NCBI GenBank assembly: GCA_900314605.1
Contig: OMVX01000018.1
Span: 1 to 35,826, forward strand
Origin: an uncultured Methanobrevibacter sp.
GTDB taxonomy: Archaea > Methanobacteriota > Methanobacteria > Methanobacteriales > Methanobacteriaceae
Direction: 5' to 3'
Length of the DNA: 35,826 bases
Below, in pieces: positions 1-35,414 of the stretch (positions within the stretch are counted from its first letter, which is position 1; every line of letters starts with the position of its first letter). The notes under the pieces are model-generated. The model saw nothing but the letters and a program-made list of their open reading frames with translations, was not told the origin of the DNA and made no database searches. The position numbers and the translations under genes were made by a program.

Positions 1-2256
1 AAAATAACTGCAAGTAATATGGTTATGGTTTATTCAAATAAGACTAAATATGTAATTAGATTATTAGATGCTAAGAAAAACCCTATAGCTAATAAAAGAA
101 TTTTATTTAAAATAAACGGGCTTTTATATAAACTTGTTACTAATAATAATGGTTATGCTCACAGAGTAATTAATCTACCAATTGGTAATTATAAAGTTCA
201 AATGAGTTTTTCAGGTGATAGTTTTTATAATGAATCTCGTAAGAATACTAAAATTACTGTAAAAAAAATCTCAACTATAATTACAGCAAAAGATTTTAGA
301 GAAAATTATGGAGATGGAAATTATTTTATTACTAAATTAAGTAGTAATTTAGCAAATAAACTTGCTAAACAGAAAGTTTATTTTACAATTAATGGTCAAA
401 CTATAACTAGAACTACTAATAACAATGGTAATATATATTTAAAACTCAATTTAAAACCTAAAACTTATAAAATGAAAATTAGTTTTAAGGGTAATTCTAA
501 ATATACTTCTAAATCTATTACTCGGAAAATTGTAATTTATAAAAATAACACAAAACTTTCTGTACAAAGATCTAATGCTACATTCCTTAAAGGTGAATCA
601 TTTGGTGTTTATCTTAAGGATAGGAACAATCAACCAGTTTCAGATAAGAAAATTAAAATCACTATTAATGGTAAAACTTATACTAAAACTACTAATGATA
701 AAGGTTTAGCTCGTTTAGCATTAGATATCAAAGAGGGAACTTATAAAGTGGATATCTTATATAAAAATTCTACTAATTCATTTATGTCTTCTTCTTTATC
801 TACTAAAGTTAAAGTTATCAAAAATGTAACTTATATTCAAGCCTATGATAAGCATGTTATTAATGGTACACAAAATCATTTTGGAATAATATTATATGAT
901 GTATGGAAAAATCCAATGGTTGGTGAAAATATTACTTTCACATTAAATGGAGTAAGTACTGTTAGAACTACTAGTTCAACAGGTTATGCTTATATTCCTT
1001 ACCAATTAACTACAGGAACATATAAAATTTCATATGCATACATTAATGAAAATCCAGATTTAAGTAATAAAGGTACTAAGACAATCTATGTCTATGATAA
1101 TAAAACATATATCGAGGGTTCAAATATGCAGATGTATGTTAATATTTCTAAAACATATTCTGTAACTTTAAAAGATCAATTTGGTAACCCATTACAAGGT
1201 AAAGTTGTTACTTTCACTTTAGAGGATAAAAATTACACTGAAACTACGAATAATAAGGGTGTTGCAAGTAAATCTTTCACTTTAAACACTGTGGGAAACT
1301 ATACAATTCATTATTCTTTTAAAGATGATGGGGACCATCCTTCTGTTAGCGGTAATTCTATACTAATAGTATCTAAAGATCCTAATGCATTTAGTATTGA
1401 CCAAATTGTTGAAGCTTCAAGAACCCTTGCAACTTATTATAAAGCTAATGGAACAATTCCAGATCATATTAAAATTTTAAATAAGAAGGTTACAATGGCT
1501 CAATTCTTGTATTATGCAAGTCGTGCTATTTCACAAATTCAAGCAGGTAAATTTAATGATATTTCTATAATTAAATCTTTAAGTGAACCTGGAAACCCTA
1601 CTGGAGATACTATTAATGATAAATTAGCTTTAAAAGATTATGTTGATTCTGCTACTAGAACATATAAGTGGATATTAGAAAATGGTCAAGGTCCAAACTA
1701 TTCAACTACTACACTTGGTAAAATCCCTTATGAGGATTTAATTGACACATTTGCTCGTGTTTTAGTTTCTTATGGGGATAATAAAAAATTACCAGCAAGT
1801 ATTATTGTAGAAACCAGTTCCTCTGGTGGACATGCACATATTACTCCAGCTATAAGGTCTTTAGCTCATGAATTAACAGATAGTTTAACTTCAGAGTATT
1901 CAAAAGCAGTGGCTTTATTTAATTGGGTTAGAGATAAAATCTCATATGATTATTATGCTAACTCACTTCAAGGTGCTGCAAAAACTCTTCAAGTTAGATC
2001 AGGTAATTGTTGTGATCAATCTAACCTTTATGTTGCTTTATGTAGGTCTATAGGTCTTGAAATAAGATATGTACATGGATACTGTTATTTCCCTCTTGAT
2101 GGTTGTTGGTATGGTCATGTATGGACTGAAGTTAAAATTAATGGTAAATGGTATAGTGCAGATTGTGTTTCTCCTAGAAACTCATTTGGTAAAATTGTAA
2201 ACTGGGATACTTCAACTGCAACTATTTATAATAGATATAAAGATTTACCATTTTAG
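1..2256 (+). CDS. Secreted Ig-like-repeat protein with pseudomurein-binding repeats and transglutaminase-like domain (5' partial)
   Basis: The reading frame is open from base 1, so the N-terminus and any signal peptide lie outside the window; the ATG at 19 is internal. Five Ig-like beta-sandwich repeats of about 90 residues fill nt 1-1380, each with an N-G-x-x-Y/T strand, a T-T-N-N-x-G turn and a G-x-Y-K strand. Next come two or more helical segments of pseudomurein-binding-repeat type (about nt 1390-1810; for example the stretch ending NGTIPDHI and the one ending KLPASIIV). The C-terminal domain (about nt 1850-2256) is transglutaminase-like: Cys in SGNCCDQ (nt 2008-2013), His in YGHVWTEV and Asp in YSADCV give the Cys-His-Asp triad. 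Pseudomurein endoisopeptidases use this fold and triad, so it may cleave or remodel the cell's own wall peptide bridges; a structural adhesin role is the alternative. A stem-loop terminator follows. Confidence 0.85.
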   Translation, partial: KITASNMVMVYSNKTKYVIRLLDAKKNPIANKRILFKINGLLYKLVTNNNGYAHRVINLPIGNYKVQMSFSGDSFYNESRKNTKITVKKISTIITAKDFRENYGDGNYFITKLSSNLANKLAKQKVYFTINGQTITRTTNNNGNIYLKLNLKPKTYKMKISFKGNSKYTSKSITRKIVIYKNNTKLSVQRSNATFLKGESFGVYLKDRNNQPVSDKKIKITINGKTYTKTTNDKGLARLALDIKEGTYKVDILYKNSTNSFMSSSLSTKVKVIKNVTYIQAYDKHVINGTQNHFGIILYDVWKNPMVGENITFTLNGVSTVRTTSSTGYAYIPYQLTTGTYKISYAYINENPDLSNKGTKTIYVYDNKTYIEGSNMQMYVNISKTYSVTLKDQFGNPLQGKVVTFTLEDKNYTETTNNKGVASKSFTLNTVGNYTIHYSFKDDGDHPSVSGNSILIVSKDPNAFSIDQIVEASRTLATYYKANGTIPDHIKILNKKVTMAQFLYYASRAISQIQAGKFNDISIIKSLSEPGNPTGDTINDKLALKDYVDSATRTYKWILENGQGPNYSTTTLGKIPYEDLIDTFARVLVSYGDNKKLPASIIVETSSSGGHAHITPAIRSLAHELTDSLTSEYSKAVALFNWVRDKISYDYYANSLQGAAKTLQVRSGNCCDQSNLYVALCRSIGLEIRYVHGYCYFPLDGCWYGHVWTEVKINGKWYSADCVSPRNSFGKIVNWDTSTATIYNRYKDLPF

Positions 2257-2274
2257 ATTAAACAAAATTTCTTT

Positions 2275-2306
2275 AAGAGGTTTTCTCCTCTTACTTTTTA
2301 TTTTTT
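2275..2306 (+). terminator. Stem-loop plus T-rich terminator
   Basis: AAGAGG (2275-2280) pairs with CCTCTT (2287-2292) across a six-base loop and is followed by a T-rich run. It starts about 20 bases after the stop codon of the first surface-protein gene. Confidence 0.55.
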
Positions 2307-3280
2307 AATATATTGTCTTATCTTATTTTTTTAGATTTTTTTTGGTGTTTTTTTATTTTTAATTGTCTGATTTTTTTATTTATATTGTTTTATTGTTTTT
2401 TAAAATTTTAATTTTTTTTATAATATAATTTTAAAAATAACAATATTTTATCAAATTGATATATATCTTCTTTTTAATTTTTAAGAAGAAAAATAGTTTT
2501 ATTAATTAAATTGATTTTTCTATTAATTATTTTAAAATTATTTTTTTTACTTTAAGATAATTTTACCATTTTTTTATTAAAATTATATTTTTAGGCCCTA
2601 TTTTTTCTATTTTCAAAGTATTTAGATTTTTATTAGTTTTTTTTTTTTTAAAATTTGTTATTTTTATTTTTGATTTTATTAAAAATGGGATAACTATTTT
2701 AATAGACATTTTTTTTCTGTATGTTTATTCATAAATCAAATTTTGTTAATATTTATTTTGTTTTGTTTCTAAATCATTCATTTTCGGTATTTTTTTTACA
2801 AATGGTGTTTAGATTTTACCATACATTTCCTATTTTTATTAATTTTTTATAAGATATATTTTTTAATAATCTCTTAAAAAAGAATTAAAATGATTATTGT
2901 TATTAGTTTTTTTATTCTTTAATTTAAATCTAGTTAAACTGACCATTTTATTAATTATTTTATTTTTATTTTTTATAAATAAGAATTTTAATATTAATTT
3001 TATTATTCTAAATTTTCTCTTAATCATATTTTTTTTATTTGTTGAATAAATTATCTTATTTATTTTTATTATTTTTAAACGAAATTTCAATTTATTAATA
3101 GTTTTTAAGCTATTTATAATTAAAAATAAATTAAACCCTACTATTTTTTATTAATAATATTTTAACAATCTTTAAATAAGAAGTTAATTATAAATAGATT
3201 ATATTTTAAAAATTATCTTAGTTTTTTTAATATTATTTATTGAAAAAATTAGTATATTTTTAAAATATATAATTCAATTT
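2307..3280. other. About 1 kb AT-rich intergenic region
   Basis: This stretch between two surface-protein genes is almost entirely A and T with long T runs. The only short open frame in it (2863-3090, - strand) is Lys/Ile/Asn-rich, low in complexity and has no convincing ribosome binding site. I see no RNA gene or repeat. It should hold the promoter of the gene starting near 3294, but no single TATA box stands out. Confidence 0.5.
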
Positions 3281-3293
3281 TGAGGTGAAGAAA

Positions 3294-5750
3294 ATTTCAT
3301 TGAGAAGAAAGTCGATTTTATCATTACTATTATTAGTTTCTCTAATTTTATGTATCTCTGCAGTTTCTGCAAGTGAGTTTAGTGACTCTAATAATACAGT
3401 AAGTTCAGTTAATACTTTATCAACAGATTCTAATCTATTGAATACTAATTCTGATCCTACAGATAGTGGAGTATCAGAAGTTTGTAATGAGGAATCCTCA
3501 TCAGATGATAATTTGGGTACTGGTTCTTCTAATATTGTTGAATCCACTAATCCTACAATTTCATCTGGTCAATGTTCAGTTGATGAAAATAATATATATA
3601 CTGCAGAAGAACCTGCGGTTGTTAAAGTTTCACAAGCTAACAAATTTTCCTCAGAAGATTCAACTGTTGTTAAAAGTCAATCATTAACTAAAACTTATTT
3701 TAAAGCAACCAATAAAAAAATGTTTAATGGTCAAACATATTCTGTTGGTTTGTTAGATTCAAAAAATAATATCCTTTCTAATCAAAAAATAACATTTAAA
3801 GTTAATGGAAATGTTTTTACTTCAACAACAGACAAAAACGGTTATGCAGGTTTTTTAGTTAATTTAAAGCCTGGTACCTATAACATTGCTTATTCCTTTG
3901 CAGGGTCTAATGCTTATATGGCTACTAGTGGTTCTAGTATTATAACTGTTGCAAAGAAAGCAACTTACTTTAGAGTTTATAGTACTACTACAACTTATGA
4001 TGCTAAGAATAAGGCTCAAATTAAATTGAGAGATCAAGATGGTAATAATCTTGCAGGTCAAAATATTAAGGTAATTGTTAACGGTAAAACTTATAAGTTT
4101 ACTACTAATTCCAATGGAAATGCTTACCTTAATGCTGTTTTAAAACCTGGTTCTTATAAGACAACTGTTAAATTTGATGGTTCAAGCTCATATGAAGCTT
4201 CAAATAAAACCATTACTATTAATGTCAATAAAGCTGTTTCTAATATTGCTGCAGCAAATGTTAAATATTACTATTCTGATACTGGTAAAAAGTTCAATGT
4301 AACTTTAAAAAATAGCAATGGCGATCCATTAAAAAATCAAAAGATCTATATTGTTACCAGTAAAAAGACTTTTACAGTTAAAACCAATTCAAATGGTATT
4401 GCATCAAAAAGTATAAGTATGCCCGTTGGAAAGTATAGTATAAACTATTATTATGAAGGTAGCTCATGTTACCTTGGTTCTAGACCGGCTAAAAAGGCTA
4501 CTATTACCATTTTAAAAGATGCTATTAGATTCCAAGCAAGTAACTACAGAATGAATTATCATAATGGTAATTACACTGTTAAGTTACTTAGTGCAAAAGG
4601 TAAACCAATGTCTAAAGAAAAAGTTACTTTTAGACTAGCAGGTAAAGATTATGTAGTTTTAACAAATAAAACTGGTGATGCTACTTTACCTATTGATAAA
4701 AGTGTAGGTACCTATAAAATTAAATTTTCATATGTTAACCCTAAAGACAAAAGTCAATCAGCTTCTGATACTAAAACTATTGTTATTAAAGGTATTAAAA
4801 CCATTTTAAATGGAACTAATATTTATTATAACTATGGTCAAAATAAGCCATTAAAAGTTACTTATCAAACTGCTAGTGGTAAAGTTTTACCAGGAGTTGA
4901 AGTTAATTTTGTTGTAGATGGTGAAAATTATACCAATACAACTGATTCAAATGGTATCGCATATTTATATTTAAATAAAGGTGTTGGTGCTTATATGGTT
5001 CAGTATTCAGTTGGTAATCATACAGCATATCAAGAATCCTCTAACACCAGTAAAGTAGTTGTTAAAGGTTCTGTTTTTATTGCAAAATCAATGACTTGGT
5101 ATACTAAATCGTATGGAAATTATACTGTTAGATTAGTAGACCACTATGGTCATCCTATTGCAAATGCTATAGTCACATTCAGTGCTGTTAATAGGACTTT
5201 TAAAAGGGTTACCGATGCGAATGGTTATGCTAATTTAGCTTTTAAACTTGCTAAAGGTAAGTATAAAATTGGTTTTACCTATGACGGTAATTCTACTTTA
5301 CCAGGTACCAGTGGTGCTAAATATCTCACTATTAAAGATAAATCTGTAGACCCTTCAAGTATTAAATCACTAGCAAGGACCCTTACAGAGGGACTTACTT
5401 CTGATTATGAAAAGGGTAAAGTTTTATTTAATTGGGTTAGAGATAACATAGATTATAGTTACTATGCTAACTCTCAACAAGGAGCTGCAAAAACTCTTAA
5501 AATCAGATCTGGTAACTGTTGTGATCAATCTAATTTACTTGTGGCTTTATGTAGAGAAGTTGGTGTTACCATCAGGTATGTTCATGGTAGAGCTCAATTT
5601 TTAGATGGTACCTTTGACCATGTTTGGACTGAAGTAAAAGCTAATGGTAAATGGTATGAAGCTGACCCTGTAACTGTCAGAGATACATTTGGTCATAATG
5701 CATGGGTTCTTATTTGTATCTATGCAAGATACTGGGATTTACCATTTTAG
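3294..5750 (+). CDS. Secreted Ig-like-repeat protein with transglutaminase-like domain
   Basis: About 818 residues. The start is ambiguous: GTG at 3285 overlaps the Shine-Dalgarno GAGGTGA, ATT at 3294 is seven bases after its GGT, and TTG at 3300 is also in frame. I chose 3294 by analogy with two other genes here; all three give a signal peptide (RRKS, a Leu/Val/Ile core, then AVSAS). A Ser/Asn/Thr-rich segment of about 95 residues follows, then six Ig-like repeats of about 90 residues, then a transglutaminase-like domain with Cys in SGNCCDQ, His in FDHVWTEV and Asp in YEADPV. The catalytic domain is close to that of the protein upstream, but no pseudomurein-binding repeats separate it from the Ig-like repeats. 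Likely a surface-anchored or released wall-acting or adhesin-like protein. The substrate is unknown. Confidence 0.85.
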   Translation: MSLRRKSILSLLLLVSLILCISAVSASEFSDSNNTVSSVNTLSTDSNLLNTNSDPTDSGVSEVCNEESSSDDNLGTGSSNIVESTNPTISSGQCSVDENNIYTAEEPAVVKVSQANKFSSEDSTVVKSQSLTKTYFKATNKKMFNGQTYSVGLLDSKNNILSNQKITFKVNGNVFTSTTDKNGYAGFLVNLKPGTYNIAYSFAGSNAYMATSGSSIITVAKKATYFRVYSTTTTYDAKNKAQIKLRDQDGNNLAGQNIKVIVNGKTYKFTTNSNGNAYLNAVLKPGSYKTTVKFDGSSSYEASNKTITINVNKAVSNIAAANVKYYYSDTGKKFNVTLKNSNGDPLKNQKIYIVTSKKTFTVKTNSNGIASKSISMPVGKYSINYYYEGSSCYLGSRPAKKATITILKDAIRFQASNYRMNYHNGNYTVKLLSAKGKPMSKEKVTFRLAGKDYVVLTNKTGDATLPIDKSVGTYKIKFSYVNPKDKSQSASDTKTIVIKGIKTILNGTNIYYNYGQNKPLKVTYQTASGKVLPGVEVNFVVDGENYTNTTDSNGIAYLYLNKGVGAYMVQYSVGNHTAYQESSNTSKVVVKGSVFIAKSMTWYTKSYGNYTVRLVDHYGHPIANAIVTFSAVNRTFKRVTDANGYANLAFKLAKGKYKIGFTYDGNSTLPGTSGAKYLTIKDKSVDPSSIKSLARTLTEGLTSDYEKGKVLFNWVRDNIDYSYYANSQQGAAKTLKIRSGNCCDQSNLLVALCREVGVTIRYVHGRAQFLDGTFDHVWTEVKANGKWYEADPVTVRDTFGHNAWVLICIYARYWDLPF

Positions 5751-5777
5751 ATAAAATTGTTTTGAAAAAATAACTTT

Positions 5778-5812
5778 TTTAAGAGGTCTTTCTCTTAAAT
5801 CAATTTTTTTAT
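5778..5812 (+). terminator. Stem-loop plus T-run terminator
   Basis: TTTAAGAG (5778-5785) pairs perfectly with CTCTTAAA (5792-5799) over a six-base loop, then a run of seven T. It resembles the terminator after the first surface-protein gene (shared AAGAGG core). Confidence 0.6.
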
Positions 5813-6105
5813 TTTTTTTATTTTTTATTTTTCTAATAATATGATTTTAGCTTTAATGTGAATTTCTCGCTGAATTTTGTTTTATTACTATTTTTTATTT
5901 CTTTTATATTTCTTCTGAAGATTCTATTTTTTAATAAACTACTATTTTAAAACTATTAATTATTTCAATATTCCTATTTTTTTTAAGAAAAGTTTAATAA
6001 TCTTTTAATTCTAATATTTAATTAATAATTATATAATAAATTAATAAAAAAAAATATTTAATTTTTTATTTAATATAATTTAAAATTTTCAATTTCAAAA
6101 TCTTT
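5813..6105. other. AT-rich upstream region
   Basis: Intergenic, mostly A and T. The motif AAAAGTTTAATAATCTTT near 5990 resembles a stretch upstream of the DtxR-family gene (near 8008) and may be part of a promoter. I see nothing else. Confidence 0.35.
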
Positions 6106-6117
6106 AGAGGTGTAATA

Positions 6118-7703
6118 ATTATTTCAAGTAAGAAATTTATAATTCCAATAATTTTATTAATTTTCTTTTTAAGTTTAGGTTTTATTGCAGCAAGCGATAA
6201 TTCAAATTTTGATAATAGGGAATTAGCTAATGAGTTATATGTAGATGATGTGGATATCCCTGCTTTAAATGGAGAAGATTCTAATAATCATACTCCTTCA
6301 GAAATGTCTAAATCTAATGAAATTATATCAAATAATAATCAAAAGTCTAATTCTTATTCATCTACCCTATCTAGTTCTAATAAAAATGGAAAAAAAGATT
6401 TGGTTATTAAAGCTTATAATTTAAATTATAATTACGGAACAAATAAAAATTATAAAGTAAAATTAATCAATGAAAAAGGTAATCCATGTAAAAACTTTAA
6501 AGTTAGAATATACTTTAAATCAAAATATTATACTCTTACAACAAATAATAATGGAAATGCCTTTTTAAAACTTAAATTAAATCCTGGAATTTATCAAATA
6601 AATATTAAATTTTTGGGTGACAAGAATTATAATCCTTGTAATATTACAAGAACCATTACTACAAATGGAACATATGTTTATGCTACTTGTCCTAGATTAA
6701 CTCCTAAAAAGTATTAAATTATCAGGTTAAAATCAAGGATTTAAATAAATTACCAATTGTTGGAGAATATGTTTCTATAACACTTGGTTCAAAAAAAGTT
6801 AAGGTTAAGACTAATAATCAGGGACTTGCTACTTTTAAAATTAAAGTTCCAAAAAAGTCAATGAAATTTTATCTTACTTATTCTGGAAAAACTTCACCTT
6901 TAACCACCATTAAAAGATATATTTATACTTTTAAAAATATGCCAAATCAAAATAGTATATGGGTTAGAGGGGAAGATATGTATAATATTAATCTTAATAC
7001 TCTTAAAAAATCTAATGTTAAAAATATTTTCCTTCATACATATGCTCTAGATGTTTTTGGTAAAAATAAAGTTAAGAACTTTATTGAAAAATCTAATAAG
7101 TATGGAATTAAAGTTCATTTATGGATGCAGTGTTTCTATAATGGTGACTGGATTAATCCATTAACTTGTGGTCAAAAGTACCTAAATAAGATTATTTCAA
7201 GAGCTAAATCTTATGCAAAAATTCCTGGTCTTGCAGGTATACATTTTGATTATTTAAGATTTGGTGGAAATGCATATGAATATAAAGGTGCTACTGAGAA
7301 AATTAGTTCTTTTACCAGAGATATTACCAATGCAATTGTTGAAGTAAATGGTGGTTTAATTTTATCAGCAGCTATTATGCCTGAGAAAGAAGATATTTAT
7401 TATTATGGTCAGGATCCTAATACATTAGGTAAGTATTTAGATGTTCTTGTACCAATGGTATATATTGGTAATTACCACCAAACCTATAAATGGATAGGAA
7501 CAATGACTAAATATTTTAAGGCTAATAGTGATACTGCAAAAGTATGGATTGGTCTTCAAACCTATAAATCAGATAGTAATCCTGTTCCAGTATCTGTTAC
7601 AAAATTAGCTAAACAAGTTAATGCTGCATATGATAATGGTGGTGATGGTATAGCTTTATTTAGATTAGGTCTTACAAATTTCTACAAAATAAGAACTAAA
7701 TAA
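6118..7703 (+). pseudogene. Secreted Ig-like-repeat protein with glycoside-hydrolase-like domain, broken by a one-base frameshift
   Basis: Two frames together make one protein. The first runs from about 6118 to the TAA at 6715-6717 and encodes a signal peptide (SSKKFIIPIILLIFFLSLGF then IAAS), a Ser/Asn-rich linker and one Ig-like repeat. The second continues from about 6708 to 7703 in another frame with a second Ig-like repeat (QVKIKDLNKLPIVGEYVSI) and a TIM-barrel-type domain. That domain has GIHFDYLRFGG, typical of the DUF4015 putative glycoside-hydrolase family, plus VHLWMQ and LVPMVYIG. The break is at a run of five A (6706-6710); six A would restore one frame. Possible explanations are a recent mutation, phase variation, programmed -1 slippage or a sequencing error. 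No ATG, GTG or TTG precedes the signal peptide in frame after the TAA at 6076, and ATT 6118 is the best-placed start (GAGGTG at 6107-6112). The first ATG, 6250, would lose the signal peptide. Confidence 0.75.
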
Positions 7704-28134: not shown

Positions 28135-28983
28135 ATGAGTGAAACTTTAAAGATTTTAACTATTCAAGATTTATCATGTTATGGGCAGTGTTCAATAACT
28201 GTTGCACTACCTATTATATCAGCTTTTGAAATTGAAACTGCGGTTATTCCTTCCTCAGTATTATCTACTCATACTTCTGGTTTTTCAGATTATACTGTTA
28301 GAGATTTAACACATGATCTTCCAGGTATTAGAGAGCACTGGGAAAAAGAGGGTATATATTTTGATGCTATTTATACAGGATATATTGGTTCTGTAGAGCA
28401 ATTTAAGTATATTAAAGAAATCATTGATTCAAGACTTAAAAAGGAGGGTAAAGTTTTTGTTGACCCTGCAATGGCAGATAATGGTGAATTTTACTTTGGA
28501 TTTGATCAAGACTTTGCTGATAAAATGGGGGAACATTGTAAATTAGGAGATTATATTCTTCCTAATACAACTGAAGCTTGTTATATTTTACATAAAACCT
28601 GGAAACCTAATTTTTCACATGAAGAAATGTTAGATATGGCTAATGAACTTTCTGACTTTACTAAAAAATATGTTATTTTAAAAGGAGATAATCATAAAAA
28701 AGATGAATTAGGAATGATAGTTTTAGATAAAGATAAACCATCAGATGTAGAAACCATATATAATAAAAAAATAGATTATGTTTCCCATGGAACAGGTGAT
28801 GTTTTTGCTTCAAGTTTCGTTGGTTCTATTTTAAATGGTAAATCTCCGTCCAGTGCTTCAAAAATTGCTGGTGAATTTACTAAAAAAGCTATTGAAGAAA
28901 CTATTGGTGATTCAAATCATACTTATGGTGTAAAATTTGAAAAAGTAATTCCATATATTCAGGATTTATTAAAATCTAATTAA
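28135..28983 (+). CDS. Pyridoxal/pyridoxamine kinase, PdxY-like
   Basis: 282 residues, ribokinase fold. It would phosphorylate pyridoxal or pyridoxamine (or a related alcohol) with ATP to salvage vitamin B6. Seen: the N-terminal ILTIQDLSCYGQCSITVALP, the substrate loop SSVLSTHTSGFSD, YTGYIGS, VFVDPAMADNGEFY, PNTTEACYIL and the anion-hole/catalytic GTGD (219-222, base Asp222) in SHGTGDVFASSFVG. These match PdxY-type kinases common in Firmicutes. ATG 28135 follows GAGGCATTAAA. It stands alone between terminator-like sequences. Confidence 0.85.
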   Translation: MSETLKILTIQDLSCYGQCSITVALPIISAFEIETAVIPSSVLSTHTSGFSDYTVRDLTHDLPGIREHWEKEGIYFDAIYTGYIGSVEQFKYIKEIIDSRLKKEGKVFVDPAMADNGEFYFGFDQDFADKMGEHCKLGDYILPNTTEACYILHKTWKPNFSHEEMLDMANELSDFTKKYVILKGDNHKKDELGMIVLDKDKPSDVETIYNKKIDYVSHGTGDVFASSFVGSILNGKSPSSASKIAGEFTKKAIEETIGDSNHTYGVKFEKVIPYIQDLLKSN

Positions 28984-29191
28984 ACTTTTTTTTTAATTTT
29001 TTTTATATTTAATCAATTATTCATTTTCTACTTTATTAAGCTAATATTTACTTTAACAATAAAAGAAATAAACAAAATAAAAAAATCAAAAAAAAAACAA
29101 TCAAAAGATGATTAATATATTAATTAAAAATAGTTCTATAAATTTTTTTCTAATCATCTATTGTTATAAAAATTATATTTTAAAAGAAAAT
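28984..29191. other. Convergent intergenic region
   Basis: Between the PdxY-like gene (+) and a small secreted-protein gene (-). GATGATTA (29107-29114) and TAATCATC (29151-29158) are inverted with a 36-base gap and may form part of a shared terminator. T-runs occur on both sides. Confidence 0.35.
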
Positions 29192-29794
29192 TTACCAGTT
29201 ATAATTATAATAAGCTCCATCATCAAAGGAATCATCAAAACTATCATCATATGCATCTGATTCATAATCTAAATTATCATCAAAGTCATACTCATCATGT
29301 GTTTTGGAAATATAATCTTTTTGAGTAATTCCAGATATGACATAAGAGATATCTACTCCTTTTGTTTGTAAATATATCACATCATTTCCAGATGCAAAAA
29401 CAAAAGTTTTAACTCCATTTTGTTCATTATAAAAACCACTGACTCCGGAAATTGTTGTTTTATATAAAGATTGACCATTCCATGTAAAATAAGTATATCC
29501 ATCCATAATTTTTTTATTATATTGGTTAGAATATTTGTCTATATTAACCTTTACATAATCATCTCCTTTTTTAAAATTCATATAATTTAGTTGACTAGAA
29601 CTATCAAATCCTTTTCCAGTTGATTTATATGATGAAGGTACATTAAAGGTATATTCTTTAAAATAATAACTTGATTGACCATTAGATCCATATAATCCTG
29701 CAGAAACAGTTTCAGAAATAACAATTGTTGATAAAAACATTGTTAAAATTATAAAAACTATTAAAATACCTTTTTTATAATTATCTTTTTTAAT
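29192..29794 (-). CDS. Small secreted protein with acidic C-terminal tail
   Basis: About 200 residues if started at ATT 29794 (- strand). The first in-frame ATG (29740) lies in the middle of the signal peptide; the full signal is KKDNYKKG, then ILIVFIILTMFLSTIVIS, then ETVSA. Upstream in frame there is a TAA, then GGT-GTT-ATT-ATT with no ATG, GTG or TTG. The Shine-Dalgarno GGGGTG lies just before, with GGT six bases from the ATT. The mature part has a beta-rich look (YYFKEYTFNVPSSYKST, FYNEQNGVKTFVFASGNDVI), and ends in an Asp/Tyr-rich tail with DDSFDDSFDD. I cannot name a family. It is probably exported; the acidic tail may bind cations. Confidence 0.7.
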   Translation of the reverse strand: MKKDNYKKGILIVFIILTMFLSTIVISETVSAGLYGSNGQSSYYFKEYTFNVPSSYKSTGKGFDSSSQLNYMNFKKGDDYVKVNIDKYSNQYNKKIMDGYTYFTWNGQSLYKTTISGVSGFYNEQNGVKTFVFASGNDVIYLQTKGVDISYVISGITQKDYISKTHDEYDFDDNLDYESDAYDDSFDDSFDDGAYYNYNW

Positions 29795-30080
29795 AATAAC
29801 ACCCCATTATAGTATTATATAATAAATGATTTTTTTTAAATATAAATCTTTCTAAAATTAATAGTGTTCGTATTTGAAATTATACATAAATATTAAGGTG
29901 CTTATTTATAATATAATCTAAAAAAATTAATTTTCCTACATATTATTATATTAGTTTATTTTAATTTTTTAATATATACCATTTTTTTTAAAAAAATTTA
30001 AATTATTTATATTATAATAATAATTAATAGATTTAATTCATATTTTTATTAAGTATATTTTTTCACTTATTTTTATGGGG
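29795..30080. other. Divergent intergenic region
   Basis: Between the small secreted-protein gene (-) and the helicase gene (+). It holds the Shine-Dalgarno of the former (GGGGTG, - strand, 29800-29805) and of the latter (GGGGGG near 30077-30082). A/T-rich promoter-like tracts occur, with nothing else recognisable. Confidence 0.4.
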
Positions 30081-30088
30081 GGTTTTTA

Positions 30089-33000
30089 ATGGTTGACTTA
30101 AATAAAAATCAGGCTAATGCAGCTTATTATGATGGGAATAAGTATTTAGTTATTGAAGCTGGGCCTGGATCAGGTAAAACACGTGTTCTTATTGAAAGAA
30201 TAAAATTTTTGATTAATGAAAAAGATGTAGACCCTTCAACTCTTTTAGTAATTACTTTTACTCGTAAAGCAGCTGATGAACTTAAAGAACGTTTATCAAA
30301 TGATATTGATGAATCTGATTTAAATTTAATGCAGATTTCAACTATTCATGCTTTTTGTAGAGTTATGCTATCTAATATTGGAGAATATAATACACGGATA
30401 TTAAGTGATAGTTTTAATGAAAGAATTAAAATGTTTTTATATAAATATAGGAAGGATTTAGGATTTGATAAAGAATGCACTATTCGACCAACTGAAATTT
30501 ATAATTTAATAAAAAAATATAATGAATATGCTACTTTTAAAGTAAATACCGATGAATTAGTCAATTATATTAGTGAAAATTATAAGGTTCAATCAGATTA
30601 TATTGATTTTGTTAATAAATATATGGATCATCATAATGGAGAATTTCCTTTCAATGAGGTTAAAGCGAGCAATTCATTTAAAGAATCTAGAAAAAATGCC
30701 TTATATTTACAAATAGCTAAATCTTATCCTAAATATCTAGAACTTTTAGATGAGAAGCGATTTTCTGATTTCAATCAGATGCAAATAAAAACTTTGGATT
30801 ATTTAAAAGAAAATCCTAAGACCCAGTATACAAATATTTTAGTTGATGAGTTTCAAGATACTGATCCTGTTCAGATGAAGATTTTTGAAATTTTAATGAA
30901 AGAAGCAGTATCTTTTACTGTGGTTGGAGATATAGATCAGAGCATATATGGTTTTAGAGGTGCTAATAAGAATTATTTTGAATATTTATACAATAATTAT
31001 GATGATAAGGTATATAAAGTAAATTTAAATGTTAATTATCGTTCAGCTAATCAGATTATCCATATTAGTGAAGATTTTATTAAATCACAAAGAACTACCG
31101 GTGCTAAACAGGATGCTGCTATAGGGGCTCGTAATTTAGATAGAGATTCTTACTTTTTTGTAAGTGAGGGTAGTGAAAATGAATCTAAATCAATTTTTAA
31201 TATGATATCATATTTGCATGATAGTGGTAAAATTGAAAATTATAATGAGATTTCTATTTTATCTCGTTCAATTAAACATAATAAAACAGCTAAAGCATTG
31301 ATTCAGTTATTTGATAATAATAAGATACCTTATCATATTAGGGGTATTCCTGATTTATTTGATAAACCTGAAATAAGATCTATTTTAACATTAATTTTTC
31401 ACCTTATACAGGATGAAAATCCTCAGAATCATAAGTTTTATAAATGGGAATTAGAATGGTTAAATCTTAAAGCTTTTACTGGAGAAAACTTTAATCAGGT
31501 TTTATTTAATTTATCTGATGAAACTAAAAATATTTTAAACAATCTTCAAGAAAATTTCGAAAAAGAACTTTTTGATAAAGAAAAGGATGTTTATTTGAAG
31601 ATAAAAGGTGAAAAAAGTCATATAAAGGGGTTTCGTGGAGTTTTTAATAGAGAGAATGATGTTTTAGTGGAATTATTTAAGAATGTAGAAAGACCTATAT
31701 TAACAGATGATAATTTAATTAAATTCGGTGTTACTAACAAAGAGGATTTAGATTTCTTTAGAAAATTAAACAAGTTAAAAAATTATATTTCCACTAAAGA
31801 TTATCAAGATTCAGATGATACAATATTAGATATTTTAATAATTTTATTAACTGATGTTTGCAATTATTTAACAGAAGACCGTATTAATGATTTTGATTAT
31901 CGTGAGGAATTAGAAAATTTAGCAATAATTAGTAATACCTTTTACAATTATGAGTTAATTGTTGATAAAAAAAATCTTAAAGGTGTTTTTCATTTTTTAA
32001 GATATAATATTCATAATTATTATACGAATGCTGATGAAAATGAAGGAATTCAATTAATGACAATACATAAATCTAAAGGATTAGAATTTCCTATAGTTAT
32101 ACTTTTATCATTAGATGAAAAAAGATTCCCTCGTGAATTTAAAGAAAAAAAAGAATCGTATCATACTCCTATTTCCTTCTTAGAATATAAAAATTTTACA
32201 TCTAAAGAAGAAGAAATAATTGAATATGATCAGGAAGAGGAAAGAATTGTTTATGTAGCTATGACAAGAGCACAAGATACTTTAATTCTATCTAATTTAA
32301 TCAAAAAATCTAGTGAATTCAATAAATTAAATGAAGAACTTAAAGAAGAATTATCTGAAATAGAAAAAAAAGATATCATACAAGAAATACCAAAAGGACA
32401 TTTTAAAATTCAAAATCTAATAAATAATAATTTAAATGAATTTAAATATCTTCAAGATGATTTTAGTATTATTCCTAAAACTGTTTGTGAAAAGCCACCT
32501 ATAAAAAATGAGAAGATAATTAATTTAAGTTTCAAATCTCTTGAAGACTATATTTATTGTCCTTTTAAATATAAATTAGTTCATGATATTAATTTTTCAG
32601 AGTCTACACTTGAATCTAATAAGTTAATGGGGTTATTCTTACATAATATATTAGAAACAATAAATAAAAAAATAGGTTCAAATAATAATCAATATATTGG
32701 GGATGATGAAGTTTTACAAGTAATTGATAACTTCATATCTTCTTTTAAATTTCAAAATTTAAAATTATCTAACTCTGATATTAATATAATAAAAAATAAT
32801 GTACTTTATTATTATAATACTTTTGGAAGAGATTTCTTAGTTAAAAATACAGAACAATCTTTTAATATTAAAAATCAACTATATCAACTATCTGGAATAA
32901 TAGATTTAATATATGAAACAAAAAACGGAAAAATTGGCCTGTTAGATTATAAAAATACAGATTTAATTTCTAAAAATTATATTAAAAAGTATATTAAACA

Positions 33001-34198
33001 ACTTTATATTTATCTTATCGGATTAAATGACCGTTTAAAAATTGATGAATTAAAAATTTATGCTATAAAATCACGAAAAATGATTAATATTAATTTAAAA
33101 GAAGAATTATTAGAAATTCTTTTAGAAGAGCTTGATTTAGTTTCACTAAATATTCAAAAAGAAATTTTTAAATGTAATATGGATGATGATTGTTATAAAT
33201 GTAGCTTTTCTAAAATATGTTTTAAATCAAATAATAATGGTTCTGTTAATTATCTTGATAAAGATTTAATTTTAACTTTTCACGATAAGTTTTATGAAAA
33301 TTTACCAGATTATGAGATTATAGATTTAAAAGATGAATATTGGACAGATATTGAATTTAATAATTCAACTCATTTTAAATCTAATACCTTACCTCATAGT
33401 AATAGTAATAGTAATAGTAATAGTAATAGTAATAGTAATAGTAATAGTAATAGTAATAGTAATAGTAATAGTAGTAATAATAATTCAGCATTAAAATTAT
33501 CTAATTTTAATATTAAGGAGGATAACTGTCATATAGATGAGATTATAGAGTATTTTAAAGCCAATAAAAATGAATCAAATATAAAAGAGATGGATAGGTT
33601 AAAGATATATTCTAATAAAAAATATGGTATTAAAAATCAGGATTTAGCCAAATTAGCTAAAAAAATTGGAAATAATCATGAACTCGCATTAGAATTATGG
33701 CAATATGACTGTCATGAATCTAAATTTTTAGCTATACTAATTGAAGACCCTTTACTAACATCTAATGATCAATTAAACCAATGGGTAAATGACTTAGATA
33801 ATTATCATATTGTAGACCATGCATGTAAAAAACTATTAGTTAATATCCCTTTTGCTATAAATAAAATACCAATATGGGCAAAATCAGATAAAGAATTGAT
33901 AAAAAGAACTGCTTTTAGTTTTATTGCAGTACTTGCATCACAGAATAATAAGGTAGATAATATAAACTTTGAAGAGTTTTTTCCGATTATTATTGAAGCC
34001 TCTTCTGATGATAGAAAATATGTTATAAAATCAGTAAAATGGGCTTTAGTATCTATTGGAAGATTAAACGAATATTTTAATATGCGAGCTATTGCAGTTT
34101 CTAACGAAATTAACCAATTAGATTTTAAATCAGCTAAATGGATAGCAAAAAAATCATTAAAAGAATTAAAAAGCAATAAAGTTCAAAATTCTTTTTAA
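30089..34198 (+). CDS. UvrD/PcrA-type helicase fused to a Cas4/AddB-like nuclease and an AlkD-type DNA glycosylase domain
   Basis: 1369 residues. Part one is an SF1A helicase: Q motif near residue 7, Walker A GPGSGKT (25-31), ITFTRKAADEL, DEFQDTDPVQ (about 252-261), GDIDQSIYGFRGAN (about 280), MTIHKSKGLEFP (about 655) and YVAMTRAQDTL (about 720). Part two (about 815-1050) looks like a PD-(D/E)XK nuclease: GLFLHNILE (His), GIIDLIYE (Asp), LLDYKN (Asp-x-Lys) and KQLYIYLIG (Gln). Cys in YIYCPFKYKL plus CYKCSFSKIC (C-x2-C-x5-C) match the four-cysteine iron-sulfur staple of Cas4/AddB. After a linker of twelve Ser-Asn pairs, part three (about 1148-1369) matches AlkD HEAT-repeat glycosylases: KKYGIKNQDLAKLAKKI, ELWQYDCHESKFLAILI, Asp1243 (AlkD Asp113) and Trp1318 (AlkD Trp187), with Tyr1239 at the Trp109 position. 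It probably unwinds, cuts and repairs alkylated DNA. ATG 30089 follows GGGGGGTTTTTA. Confidence 0.85.
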   Translation: MVDLNKNQANAAYYDGNKYLVIEAGPGSGKTRVLIERIKFLINEKDVDPSTLLVITFTRKAADELKERLSNDIDESDLNLMQISTIHAFCRVMLSNIGEYNTRILSDSFNERIKMFLYKYRKDLGFDKECTIRPTEIYNLIKKYNEYATFKVNTDELVNYISENYKVQSDYIDFVNKYMDHHNGEFPFNEVKASNSFKESRKNALYLQIAKSYPKYLELLDEKRFSDFNQMQIKTLDYLKENPKTQYTNILVDEFQDTDPVQMKIFEILMKEAVSFTVVGDIDQSIYGFRGANKNYFEYLYNNYDDKVYKVNLNVNYRSANQIIHISEDFIKSQRTTGAKQDAAIGARNLDRDSYFFVSEGSENESKSIFNMISYLHDSGKIENYNEISILSRSIKHNKTAKALIQLFDNNKIPYHIRGIPDLFDKPEIRSILTLIFHLIQDENPQNHKFYKWELEWLNLKAFTGENFNQVLFNLSDETKNILNNLQENFEKELFDKEKDVYLKIKGEKSHIKGFRGVFNRENDVLVELFKNVERPILTDDNLIKFGVTNKEDLDFFRKLNKLKNYISTKDYQDSDDTILDILIILLTDVCNYLTEDRINDFDYREELENLAIISNTFYNYELIVDKKNLKGVFHFLRYNIHNYYTNADENEGIQLMTIHKSKGLEFPIVILLSLDEKRFPREFKEKKESYHTPISFLEYKNFTSKEEEIIEYDQEEERIVYVAMTRAQDTLILSNLIKKSSEFNKLNEELKEELSEIEKKDIIQEIPKGHFKIQNLINNNLNEFKYLQDDFSIIPKTVCEKPPIKNEKIINLSFKSLEDYIYCPFKYKLVHDINFSESTLESNKLMGLFLHNILETINKKIGSNNNQYIGDDEVLQVIDNFISSFKFQNLKLSNSDINIIKNNVLYYYNTFGRDFLVKNTEQSFNIKNQLYQLSGIIDLIYETKNGKIGLLDYKNTDLISKNYIKKYIKQLYIYLIGLNDRLKIDELKIYAIKSRKMININLKEELLEILLEELDLVSLNIQKEIFKCNMDDDCYKCSFSKICFKSNNNGSVNYLDKDLILTFHDKFYENLPDYEIIDLKDEYWTDIEFNNSTHFKSNTLPHSNSNSNSNSNSNSNSNSNSNSNSNSSNNNSALKLSNFNIKEDNCHIDEIIEYFKANKNESNIKEMDRLKIYSNKKYGIKNQDLAKLAKKIGNNHELALELWQYDCHESKFLAILIEDPLLTSNDQLNQWVNDLDNYHIVDHACKKLLVNIPFAINKIPIWAKSDKELIKRTAFSFIAVLASQNNKVDNINFEEFFPIIIEASSDDRKYVIKSVKWALVSIGRLNEYFNMRAIAVSNEINQLDFKSAKWIAKKSLKELKSNKVQNSF
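33398..33469 (+). repeat. In-frame (AGTAAT)12 hexanucleotide repeat
   Basis: Twelve perfect copies of AGTAAT encode (Ser-Asn)12 between the nuclease and AlkD parts of the helicase protein, then AGT AGT AAT AAT AAT. The absence of any synonymous change indicates recent slippage growth. Six-base units keep the frame, so linker length can vary without breaking the gene. Confidence 0.95.
33515..33523 (+). promoter_or_regulatory. Internal Shine-Dalgarno-like sequence before the AlkD domain
   Basis: AAGGAGGAT lies inside the coding sequence just upstream of the first AlkD-domain residues (HIDEIIEYF, from 33530). No ATG, GTG or TTG is suitably placed in frame. It may be the relic of a once separate alkD gene or a chance Lys-Glu-Asp codon run. 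Confidence 0.4.
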
Positions 34199-34305
34199 TA
34201 TATTTTTAATAAATTAATATAACAAAGAAATAACTTTATTTTTAAAACTATATATATAAAATAAGTATTTAAATTATTTTTTTTTTTAAAAAAAAATTAA
34301 AATAT

Positions 34306-34365
34306 AAAACCCTAAATTAATTTGTAAATCTATAATTATTACAAATGAATTTAATTTGGGTTTTT
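34306..34365. terminator. Bidirectional stem-loop between converging genes
   Basis: AAACCC plus AAATTAATTTGTAA (34307-34327) pairs imperfectly with TTACAAATGAATTTAATTT plus GGGTTT (34339-34363); T- or A-runs lie on both sides. It sits between the helicase gene (+) and an acyltransferase gene (-). Confidence 0.55.
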
Positions 34366-34403
34366 ATCTATTTCATTAATATTTACATATTTTTTAAAAT
34401 TAT

Positions 34404-35414
34404 TTAATAATATCCAGAGACCAGTTTAACATATGGTATTTGTCCTAAAATCAGAACTATTAACCATGACCCTATCATTAAAAGAGTTGATATACCTAAT
34501 ATTACCAACGCTGTCATAGTACCAGAATAATGTACTCCTTTAAAGTATGCTTCTAAAAATCCTCTGACTATTATTAGATGAACCATATACATACCATAAC
34601 TTGCTCTTGCAATTGATACAATAAATTTATTAATTATATCTATTTCTAAAAATCTTCTGATTCCTCCAAATATACCTGTTTTAGCTTCGTAAGTATATTT
34701 AACAACTAAAAATAGTGATGCTGCTTGTATTACTTGAGGGAAACTTAAACTTAATTTTGAAGTTAACATTAGATTATCATATAAATAAAATGTTTCATAA
34801 TTCATGATTTTATATACACTTACTATAATAAATACAATTAAACTTATTAAAATTATTTTATTTGCAGATAAATTGAATTCTTTTTTAGATAAATAATATC
34901 CTAAAATAACGTAAGACATAGCTCCTAAAAAGAAATTTAAATCTAATGCAATCTGAATATTAAACTTATATGCTAAAGGGTAAATAATAGAAGCAATTAA
35001 AAACATTACAATAAAGTAATCTAATTCTTTAGATTTAGCATGTTGTATAAATACATTTACTACAGGAATAGCTAAAGCTATTCCTAATGCCATCCAACAA
35101 TACCAAAATTTTGATAATGGTTGGCTAGGAGAGTATACAGATAATAGTATTGCAACTATTGTAAAAAATATTACAGGAAGTAAAATTCTTACAAATTTTT
35201 TATTTAAATATTTTGATAGTTCTATTTCTTTATTAAATGCTAAACAACCAGTTACCATTATAAACATATATATAGAAAATCTGAATATTTCTTTAAGATT
35301 ATGAATTTTATAATTTAATATTTCAGTATTGGACCAAATTCCGCTTACATGTACTATTATAATAGCAAATATAGCAACAAACTTTAATGTATCAAGATAT
35401 TTTATTCTATTCAT
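34404..35414 (-). CDS. Acyltransferase-3 family membrane protein
   Basis: 336 residues with about ten membrane helices. RIKYLDTLKFVAIFAIIIVH holds the family His in helix one, and FRFSIYMFIMVTGCLAF is the second signature. IARASYGMYMVHLIIVRGF and the closing LGQIPYVKLVSGYY mark it as a paralogue of the protein at 26789-27829. Presumed O-acylation of surface sugars; substrate unknown. The ATG follows CGAGGATATGT on the - strand. Confidence 0.85.
   Translation of the reverse strand: MNRIKYLDTLKFVAIFAIIIVHVSGIWSNTEILNYKIHNLKEIFRFSIYMFIMVTGCLAFNKEIELSKYLNKKFVRILLPVIFFTIVAILLSVYSPSQPLSKFWYCWMALGIALAIPVVNVFIQHAKSKELDYFIVMFLIASIIYPLAYKFNIQIALDLNFFLGAMSYVILGYYLSKKEFNLSANKIILISLIVFIIVSVYKIMNYETFYLYDNLMLTSKLSLSFPQVIQAASLFLVVKYTYEAKTGIFGGIRRFLEIDIINKFIVSIARASYGMYMVHLIIVRGFLEAYFKGVHYSGTMTALVILGISTLLMIGSWLIVLILGQIPYVKLVSGYY

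What the first reader, a model, noticed from the sequence alone, without database searches (positions are those of the whole stretch)
30089..34198. Three-part helicase, iron-sulfur nuclease and AlkD glycosylase fusion
One unbroken frame encodes a UvrD/PcrA-like helicase, a PD-(D/E)XK nuclease with the C...CxxCx5C cysteine pattern of Cas4/AddB, and a full-length AlkD-type domain keeping the catalytic Asp and one of the two key Trp, the other being Tyr. Helicase-nuclease fusions of the AddA/AddB kind are known, and AlkD is known as a free glycosylase for 3-methyladenine, 7-methylguanine and bulky adducts. I do not know of a described fusion of all three. It suggests one machine that opens DNA at an alkylated base, removes the base and processes the strand, perhaps against alkylating natural products in the gut.
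Basis: partly seen in the sequence, partly recalled or inferred. Interest (0 to 1): 0.85.

Follow-up and report, generated by a model that had tools for sequence, protein, structure and literature searches.

The report
Helicase-nuclease with fused AlkD-like tail
A gut-type methanogen has welded a DNA-repair-like AlkD domain onto a known kind of DNA-unwinding and DNA-cutting protein that is usually found among virus-defence genes; the weld looks genuine and is so far seen in one genome, and the AlkD part has lost residues its enzyme relatives never lose, so it more likely recognises DNA than removes damaged bases.

Summary
Window 30089-34198 is one 1369-aa frame: UvrD helicase (4-735), PD-(D/E)XK nuclease with C...CxxCx5C (813-1044), a (Ser-Asn)n linker coded by a hexanucleotide array, and an AlkD-family domain (1153-1337, Pfam E=1e-20). 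The interpretation needs changing. The helicase-nuclease core has the architecture of the published UvrD-Cas4 fusion, predicted to serve in defence. Its closest relative (69%, sister in the tree) lies beside a type III-A CRISPR operon and carries a repeat linker and TPR-like tail instead of AlkD. The AlkD tail is the only fused one among about 120 AlkD relatives sampled. It keeps Asp113 and Trp187 but has Tyr for Trp109 and Val for Arg190, both invariant in 109 free relatives, and its branch is the longest in the family tree. The gene sits in a 5.4-kb insertion absent from a congener, at a locus where other congeners carry type I restriction or McrBC genes. A Shine-Dalgarno-like GGAGG stands just before the lost AlkD start, a likely fossil of a separate gene. 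Most likely the tail is a DNA-recognition module on a defence helicase-nuclease, not an alkyl-base glycosylase. New variant of a known kind; function untested.

The parts
30089..34198 (+). single ORF, 1369 aa: UvrD helicase + Cas4-like nuclease + (Ser-Asn)n linker + AlkD-family domain
30098..31000 (+). UvrD/REP helicase N-terminal domain (aa 4-304), Walker A GPGSGKT, DEFQDTDP
   Evidence: Pfam PF00580 3e-56; motifs invariant in 44 sequences
31019..32293 (+). UvrD helicase C-terminal domain (aa 311-735)
   Evidence: Pfam PF13361 7e-35
32525..33220 (+). PD-(D/E)XK nuclease, pfam12705/Cas4-like (aa 813-1044), C824 + C1035xxC1038x5C1044
   Evidence: Pfam PF12705 8e-16, TIGR00372 cas4 9e-9; residues conserved
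33221..33379 (+). post-nuclease segment (about aa 1045-1097), shared only with the closest core relative L008
   Evidence: 69% identity over query 2-1097 to G018; most other relatives stop near 1045
33396..33482 (+). (ATAGTA)14.5 hexanucleotide array = (Ser-Asn)n linker
   Evidence: Tandem Repeats Finder score 160, 96% matches
33517..33529 (+). GGAGG + 5-nt spacer + TGT at the place of the start codon of free-standing alkD genes: likely fossil ribosome-binding site of a once separate gene
   Evidence: one of 13 GGAGG sites on both strands of the 35.8-kb window; TGT aligns with the start codons of free-standing relatives
33545..34099 (+). AlkD-family (PF08713) HEAT-like repeat domain (aa 1153-1337; homology extends to about 1369); W109->Y1239, R190->V1321, D113/R148/W187 kept
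28981..34406 (.). segment between the pdxK-like gene and the acyltransferase gene that is only 172 bp in congener G007: inserted cargo (182-aa ORF plus the fusion gene)
29192..29740 (-). 182-aa ORF of unknown function lying in the same inserted segment (no Pfam match)

Best explanation
A UvrD-Cas4-type helicase-nuclease of the kind found among anti-virus genes entered this Methanobrevibacter-type genome as part of a 5.4-kb insertion beside a pdxK-like gene. A once separate alkD-family gene became joined in frame to its end through a (Ser-Asn)n repeat linker. Shown here: the open frame, the domain order, the intact helicase and nuclease motifs, the altered AlkD active site and the insertion. 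Inferred: the AlkD part folds as a HEAT-like DNA clamp that no longer works as a standard 3-methyladenine/7-methylguanine glycosylase. It acts as a tethered recognition arm that docks on distorted, branched or chemically modified DNA, most likely foreign DNA. The helicase then loads and unwinds 3'-5', and the iron-sulfur nuclease cuts the strand.
For: Core identity: UvrD + PDDEXK_1 + Cas4 matches and the published UvrD-Cas4 fusion with predicted defence role (PMC5704561). Defence setting of relatives: Cas10/Csm1 and Csm3 directly beside the closest core (L082), Csm6 beside L091, LlaJI restriction enzymes, type I HsdR. Neighbours of 13 core genes matched 111 PADLOC families, including type I REase, Cas10, Cas1, Csm3 and DRT, against 30 mostly generic families for a similar number of proteins from control regions of the same genomes. 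Locus: type I RM in G008 and McrBC in G006 beside the same pdxK-like gene. Insertion relative to G007. Different extra domains on the same core: TPR-like, caspase-like (from its motif), DUF4145-like, coiled coil. Tail: W109Y, N186K, R190V; 9 of 37 conserved columns changed against at most 4 in any of 109 relatives. Longest branch in the AlkD tree, 0.97 against 0.12-0.25 for its closest relatives, while the core branch is only 0.21. Nearest solved structure by sequence and by fold is AlkF, which binds branched DNA and shows no glycosylase activity (PMC4433238).
Against: No defence gene is recognisable among the genes directly beside it in the window itself. Asp113 and Trp187 are kept and Tyr might partly replace Trp, so glycosylase activity is not excluded. 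AlkF's DNA-binding beta-hairpin is absent from the model, so branched-DNA binding is an analogy only. The fusion is known from one genome, so conservation of the arrangement by selection cannot be tested. The scan that gathered 80 of the 109 relatives used patterns next to some of the compared columns; only the 29 found without patterns are free of that bias, and they show the same W109 and R190 conservation.
Confidence: 0.5

Rival explanations
1. Defence machine with a live glycosylase of altered specificity: the tail excises a modified base of viral DNA (as Brig1 does for T4), and the helicase-nuclease degrades DNA from the abasic site.
For: Defence-type core and locus; catalytic Asp113 and Trp187 kept, Tyr in place of Trp109; DNA glycosylases are proven antiviral effectors (PMC11078745).
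Against: Arg190 and Asn186, invariant in relatives, are lost; no modified-base virus of this host is known from the data used; Brig1 is not described as an AlkD relative in what was read.
Confidence: 0.17
2. Repair machine: the helicase opens DNA at an alkylated base, AlkD removes it, the nuclease processes the strand.
For: AlkD family assignment is firm; the genome has no other AlkD relative, and the native alkD place between fprA and thermosome is empty; a helicase-glycosylase fusion exists in E. coli Lhr (PMC10953399).
Against: One of the three catalytic residues and Arg190 changed; accelerated evolution; congener G007 has no AlkD relative at all, and the core is of the defence type.
Confidence: 0.13
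3. Recent accidental fusion: read-through joined an alkD gene to the helicase-nuclease gene, and the tail is a drifting passenger without a role.
For: Single occurrence; fossil GGAGG before the lost start; many conserved residues lost, long branch.
Against: The tail is still fully open over 229 codons, keeps 28 of 37 conserved columns and gives a confident fold. The sister gene also carries a long linker and a different tail, so tails seem to be tolerated or selected.
Confidence: 0.15
4. Assembly artefact: two loci wrongly joined at the (AGTAAT)n repeat.
For: The junction is an 87-bp low-complexity array in a draft genome of 103 contigs; similar (SN)n stretches occur in other proteins of the family, such as L067.
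Against: Left flank (pdxK-like) and right flank (acyltransferase) are direct neighbours in congener G007, so both sides of the repeat belong to one locus. Only a local collapse would remain, and a hexamer collapse keeps the frame.
Confidence: 0.05

Closest known systems
UvrD-Cas4-like (pfam12705) helicase-nuclease fusions (Hudaiberdiev et al. 2017, PMC5704561)
   Same: UvrD SF1 helicase with a Cas4-like PD-(D/E)XK nuclease in one chain; occurs in mesophilic archaea; variable, defence-rich neighbourhoods.
   Different: The passages read describe no AlkD tail or (SN)n linker; here the relatives' neighbours include type III-A CRISPR, type I and LlaJI-type restriction, as well as unrelated genes.
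AlkD (B. cereus), AlkD-family DNA glycosylases
   Same: HEAT-like repeat fold; Asp113, Arg148 and Trp187 equivalents kept.
   Different: Fused; Trp109 is Tyr and Arg190 is Val; 19% identity in the structural alignment; activity unknown.
AlkF/AlkG (B. cereus), non-catalytic HEAT-like proteins that bind branched DNA
   Same: Best solved match by sequence profile and by fold (TM 0.73); Tyr at the Trp109 place in the alignment.
   Different: AlkF's beta-hairpin is absent; Trp187 and Arg148 are kept here but not at the aligned places of AlkF.
Lhr helicase with AlkZ-like C-terminal domain (E. coli; PMC10953399)
   Same: A helicase and a DNA glycosylase-like domain in one chain.
   Different: A different helicase type, unrelated glycosylase fold (HTH_42), no nuclease; a repair role is reported.
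Brig1 antiviral DNA glycosylase (PMC11078745)
   Same: Precedent for glycosylase chemistry in defence.
   Different: Separate gene; excises glucosylated hydroxymethylcytosine; relationship to AlkD not tested here.
AddAB / RecBCD / AdnAB
   Same: UvrD-type motor with a RecB-family nuclease.
   Different: Scores far below the curated AddA and RecB cut-offs; a single chain with one motor; no partner subunit beside it in the window.

Membership tests
UvrD-Cas4 (pfam12705) fusion | UvrD N- and C-terminal helicase domains followed by a PF12705 nuclease in one chain | tested here: met
   PF00580, PF13361, PF12705 all above cut-off
UvrD-Cas4 (pfam12705) fusion | Cas4-like four-cysteine iron-sulfur pattern | tested here: met
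   C824, C1035, C1038, C1044; conserved in 42-43 of 44
UvrD-Cas4 (pfam12705) fusion | Helicase domain falls in the monophyletic clade of the published family | not tested
   The published tree was not rebuilt; only Methanobacteriaceae relatives were placed
UvrD-Cas4 (pfam12705) fusion | Defence gene neighbourhood | tested here: inconclusive
   Relatives yes; congeners carry RM/McrBC at the same locus; none directly beside the gene in the window
AlkD DNA glycosylase | HEAT-like repeat fold / PF08713 | tested here: met
   Pfam 1.1e-20; model TM 0.64 to AlkD 5uuf
AlkD DNA glycosylase | Catalytic Trp109, Asp113, Trp187 | tested here: not met
   Y1239, D1243, W1318
AlkD DNA glycosylase | Excision of 3mA/7mG | not testable with these tools
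   needs biochemistry
AlkF/AlkG | Beta-hairpin for branched-DNA binding | tested here: not met
   model is all helical
AlkD2 | Lack of the N-terminal B-helix | tested here: inconclusive
   a helix is predicted at domain residues 22-30, but helix correspondence was not superposed
AddA / RecB equivalogs | Score above curated equivalog cut-off | tested here: not met
   AddA 151 against 708 bits; RecB 132 against 696
AdnAB | Heterodimer of two helicase-nuclease subunits | not tested
   only a 51-residue match to 1095-aa UvrD/REP helicase chains; partner not sought genome-wide
Gabija (GajB) | Adjacent GajA (OLD-family nuclease) | tested here: not met
   GajB HMMs match only the UvrD part; genes beside it are a pdxK-like kinase, a 182-aa unknown and an acyltransferase

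The most novel reading that the evidence does not exclude
In gut methanogens the UvrD-Cas4 helicase-nuclease is a common chassis that takes on interchangeable sensor or effector domains (AlkD, TPR-like, caspase-like, DUF4145-like). The AlkD version is a new class of antiviral machine that senses or excises modified viral bases and then unwinds and degrades the DNA.
Probability: 0.2. Interest if true: 0.8.

Novelty: new variant of a known kind. Interest (0 to 1): 0.5.

Why it matters
If the tail is a recognition arm or an altered glycosylase, this would be a case of AlkD-type binding or chemistry physically tied to a defence-type helicase-nuclease, and would suggest how methanogens recognise modified virus DNA. 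More broadly, the comparison shows one helicase-nuclease core carrying different extra domains in host-associated methanogens, which makes its role in immunity testable. If the tail is a passenger, it is a clear snapshot of gene fusion, with a fossil ribosome-binding site.

Tried and rejected
A pattern scan of genome contigs and viral contigs with the full protein found no relative, and viral contigs gave no AlkD-tail relative by this method. Plasmids: no record with a place covering most of the protein; the AlkD part matches only distant Sinorhizobium and Bacteroidales records. An attempt to sample PF08713 in Bacteroidota failed because the centre must be a G handle. Contamination of the contig was rejected: the pdxK-like gene is 80-85% identical to congeners against 72-75% outside the genus. 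Terminal repeats at the insertion ends were sought and none stood out; the repeats listed are AT-rich noise. Independent translation of the tail was rejected: the first in-frame start codon after the linker is ATG at residue 1168, inside the domain and without a ribosome-binding site. A general tie of the core to Cas10 was rejected: Cas10 is on the same contig and near the core only in G018 and G098. A second AlphaFold job (nuclease domain) was not run because Pfam and residue conservation were sufficient.
Full report
OBSERVATION. The ORF at window 30089-34198 is open for 1369 codons. Pfam gives UvrD-helicase 4-304, UvrD_C 311-735, PDDEXK_1 813-1044 and DNA_alkylation 1153-1337, all above their cut-offs; NCBIfam adds a Cas4 match below its cut-off. 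Between nuclease and AlkD lies a (ATAGTA)14.5 array at 33396-33482, read as (Ser-Asn)n. Active-site and iron-sulfur residues of the core are intact and mostly conserved in relatives.

WHOSE GENOME. The window is contig C34 of a 2.37-Mb draft genome. Its genus includes G006, whose AlkD contig has the length of, and an identical protein to, Methanobrevibacter sp. 87.7. The pdxK-like gene next door is 80-85% identical to three congeners and 72-75% to others, so the contig belongs to this genus.

THE CORE. In 139 Methanobacteriaceae genomes the helicase-nuclease core (residues 1-1045) is common, and no match other than the window's own spans both core and AlkD. The closest relative is in G018, a 2,937,203-bp closed genome (the size of M. 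ruminantium M1; my inference), 69% identical over residues 2-1097. The two are sisters with full support and branches of 0.21 and 0.19. That protein has about 470 further residues, a repeat-rich linker and a TPR-like tail (by eye; Pfam gave no TPR match), not AlkD. Other members carry a TPR tail (L034, Pfam), coiled-coil tails (L036, L067, L069; by eye), a DUF4145-like N-terminus (L070, Pfam match just below cut-off; L012 and L071 by eye), or a caspase-like N-terminus with GHG and DACHSG motifs followed by an (SN)n stretch (L067; motif only, Pfam gave no match). Many have no extra domain.

The core has the architecture of the UvrD-Cas4 fusion described in PMC5704561, where genomic context led the authors to predict a role in several defence systems. 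The contexts here agree. Cas10/Csm1 and Csm3 lie directly beside the G018 gene, Csm6 lies 3 bp from the G040 gene, and LlaJI and type I restriction genes occur near others. The neighbours (three ORFs each side) of 13 core genes, 73 proteins, matched 111 PADLOC families at 1e-15, many of them unmistakable. Seventy-five proteins from control regions of the same genomes matched 30, mostly generic models. The tool gives family counts, not a per-locus test, so this is support and not a statistic.

THE LOCUS. In congener G007, the pdxK-like gene and an acyltransferase gene 73% identical to the window's lie 172 bp apart. In the window they are separated by 5.4 kb holding a 182-aa ORF and the fusion gene. 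In G008 the same pdxK-like gene is flanked by a complete type I restriction system, and in G006 by McrB- and McrC-like genes. This looks like a site where defence genes come and go. It also argues strongly against a false join at the repeat, since both flanks belong to one locus.

THE TAIL. In the family, 47 of 139 genomes have an AlkD relative, and all but the window's are separate short frames. Eighty more named loci from archaea and bacteria are also separate, with frames of at most 309 aa. Against 109 such proteins the tail keeps Asp113, Arg148 and Trp187 but has Tyr for Trp109, Val for Arg190 and Lys for Asn186, each invariant in the rest. It departs at 9 of 37 columns conserved at 95% or more; the next worst sequence departs at 4 and the median is 0. 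Trp109, Asp113 and Trp187 are the three catalytic residues of B. cereus AlkD (PMC8626424). In the tree the tail has the longest branch, 0.97, next to free-standing relatives with 0.12-0.25. Caveat: 80 of the 109 were gathered with patterns covering neighbouring columns, but the 29 gathered without patterns agree. The model is confident (pLDDT 95.3); the nearest solved fold is AlkF (TM 0.73), and AlkD is matched with TM 0.64. AlkF and AlkG lack base excision activity and bind branched DNA (PMC4433238), but AlkF's hairpin is absent here.

HOW IT AROSE. A GGAGG motif (13 in both strands of the window) stands 5 nt before a TGT codon that aligns with the start codon of free-standing alkD genes. The first in-frame start codon after the linker is at residue 1168, inside the domain. 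This is what one expects if a separate alkD gene with its own ribosome-binding site was fused to the upstream frame. The tail's nearest relatives are free-standing genes of other genera (52-53% identity) and not those of its own genus (47%). The genus' own alkD place, between fprA and thermosome genes in G006 and G008, holds no alkD in this genome or in G007.

MECHANISM. Shown: architecture, intact core motifs, altered tail, insertion. Inferred: the tail serves as a tethered DNA-recognition arm for a defence helicase-nuclease. The rivals are an altered glycosylase acting on modified virus DNA, a passenger tail, ordinary alkylation repair, and an artefact, in falling order of likelihood.

NOVELTY. 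The core kind is known; a helicase-glycosylase fusion is known (Lhr, PMC10953399); antiviral glycosylases are known (Brig1, PMC11078745). A UvrD-Cas4 protein with an AlkD-family tail was not found in the papers or collections searched. It is a new variant of a known kind, seen once.

Noticed in passing
L067:1783-7746:- (G103:C202): A 1988-aa UvrD-Cas4 protein with a caspase-like N-terminus (GHG ... DACHSG), an (SN)n-rich stretch and a coiled-coil tail; no Pfam match for the N-terminus.
   Followed up: partly
L082:84-11249 (G018): A type III-A CRISPR operon (Cas10/Csm1, Csm3, further Csm-size ORFs) directly beside the closest core gene, which carries a TPR-like tail; a paralogue of the core lies about 60 kb away (L068) with a long insertion before its nuclease.
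   Followed up: partly
L091:14021-15265 (G040): A Csm6-type CARF-HEPN gene lies 3 bp from the core gene.
   Followed up: no
window 28135-28980 and L180, L181, L182: The pdxK-like gene marks a variable locus in this genus: type I restriction in G008, McrBC in G006, the fusion gene here, and a direct junction to the acyltransferase gene in G007.
   Followed up: partly
window 29192-29740 (-): A 182-aa ORF with an Asp/Tyr-rich C-terminus and no Pfam match shares the inserted segment with the fusion gene; its role is unknown.
   Followed up: partly
G000:C44:15347-15925: The window's own genome has a Cas10 gene (type III CRISPR) on another contig.
   Followed up: no
L072, L073, L074, L075, L077, L078: A distinct subfamily of the core (about 1230 aa) with a shared N-terminal extension of about 220 aa; the one scanned (L072) matches no Pfam family.
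   Followed up: no
L176, L177 against L042, L097: The alkD gene between fprA and thermosome genes of G006 and G008 is absent in the window's genome and in G007.
   Followed up: yes
window 19-6714: Three ORFs of one related cluster (745, 821, 155 aa), also related to a 1789-aa ORF near a core gene in G037; possibly adhesin-like surface proteins, not examined.
   Followed up: no
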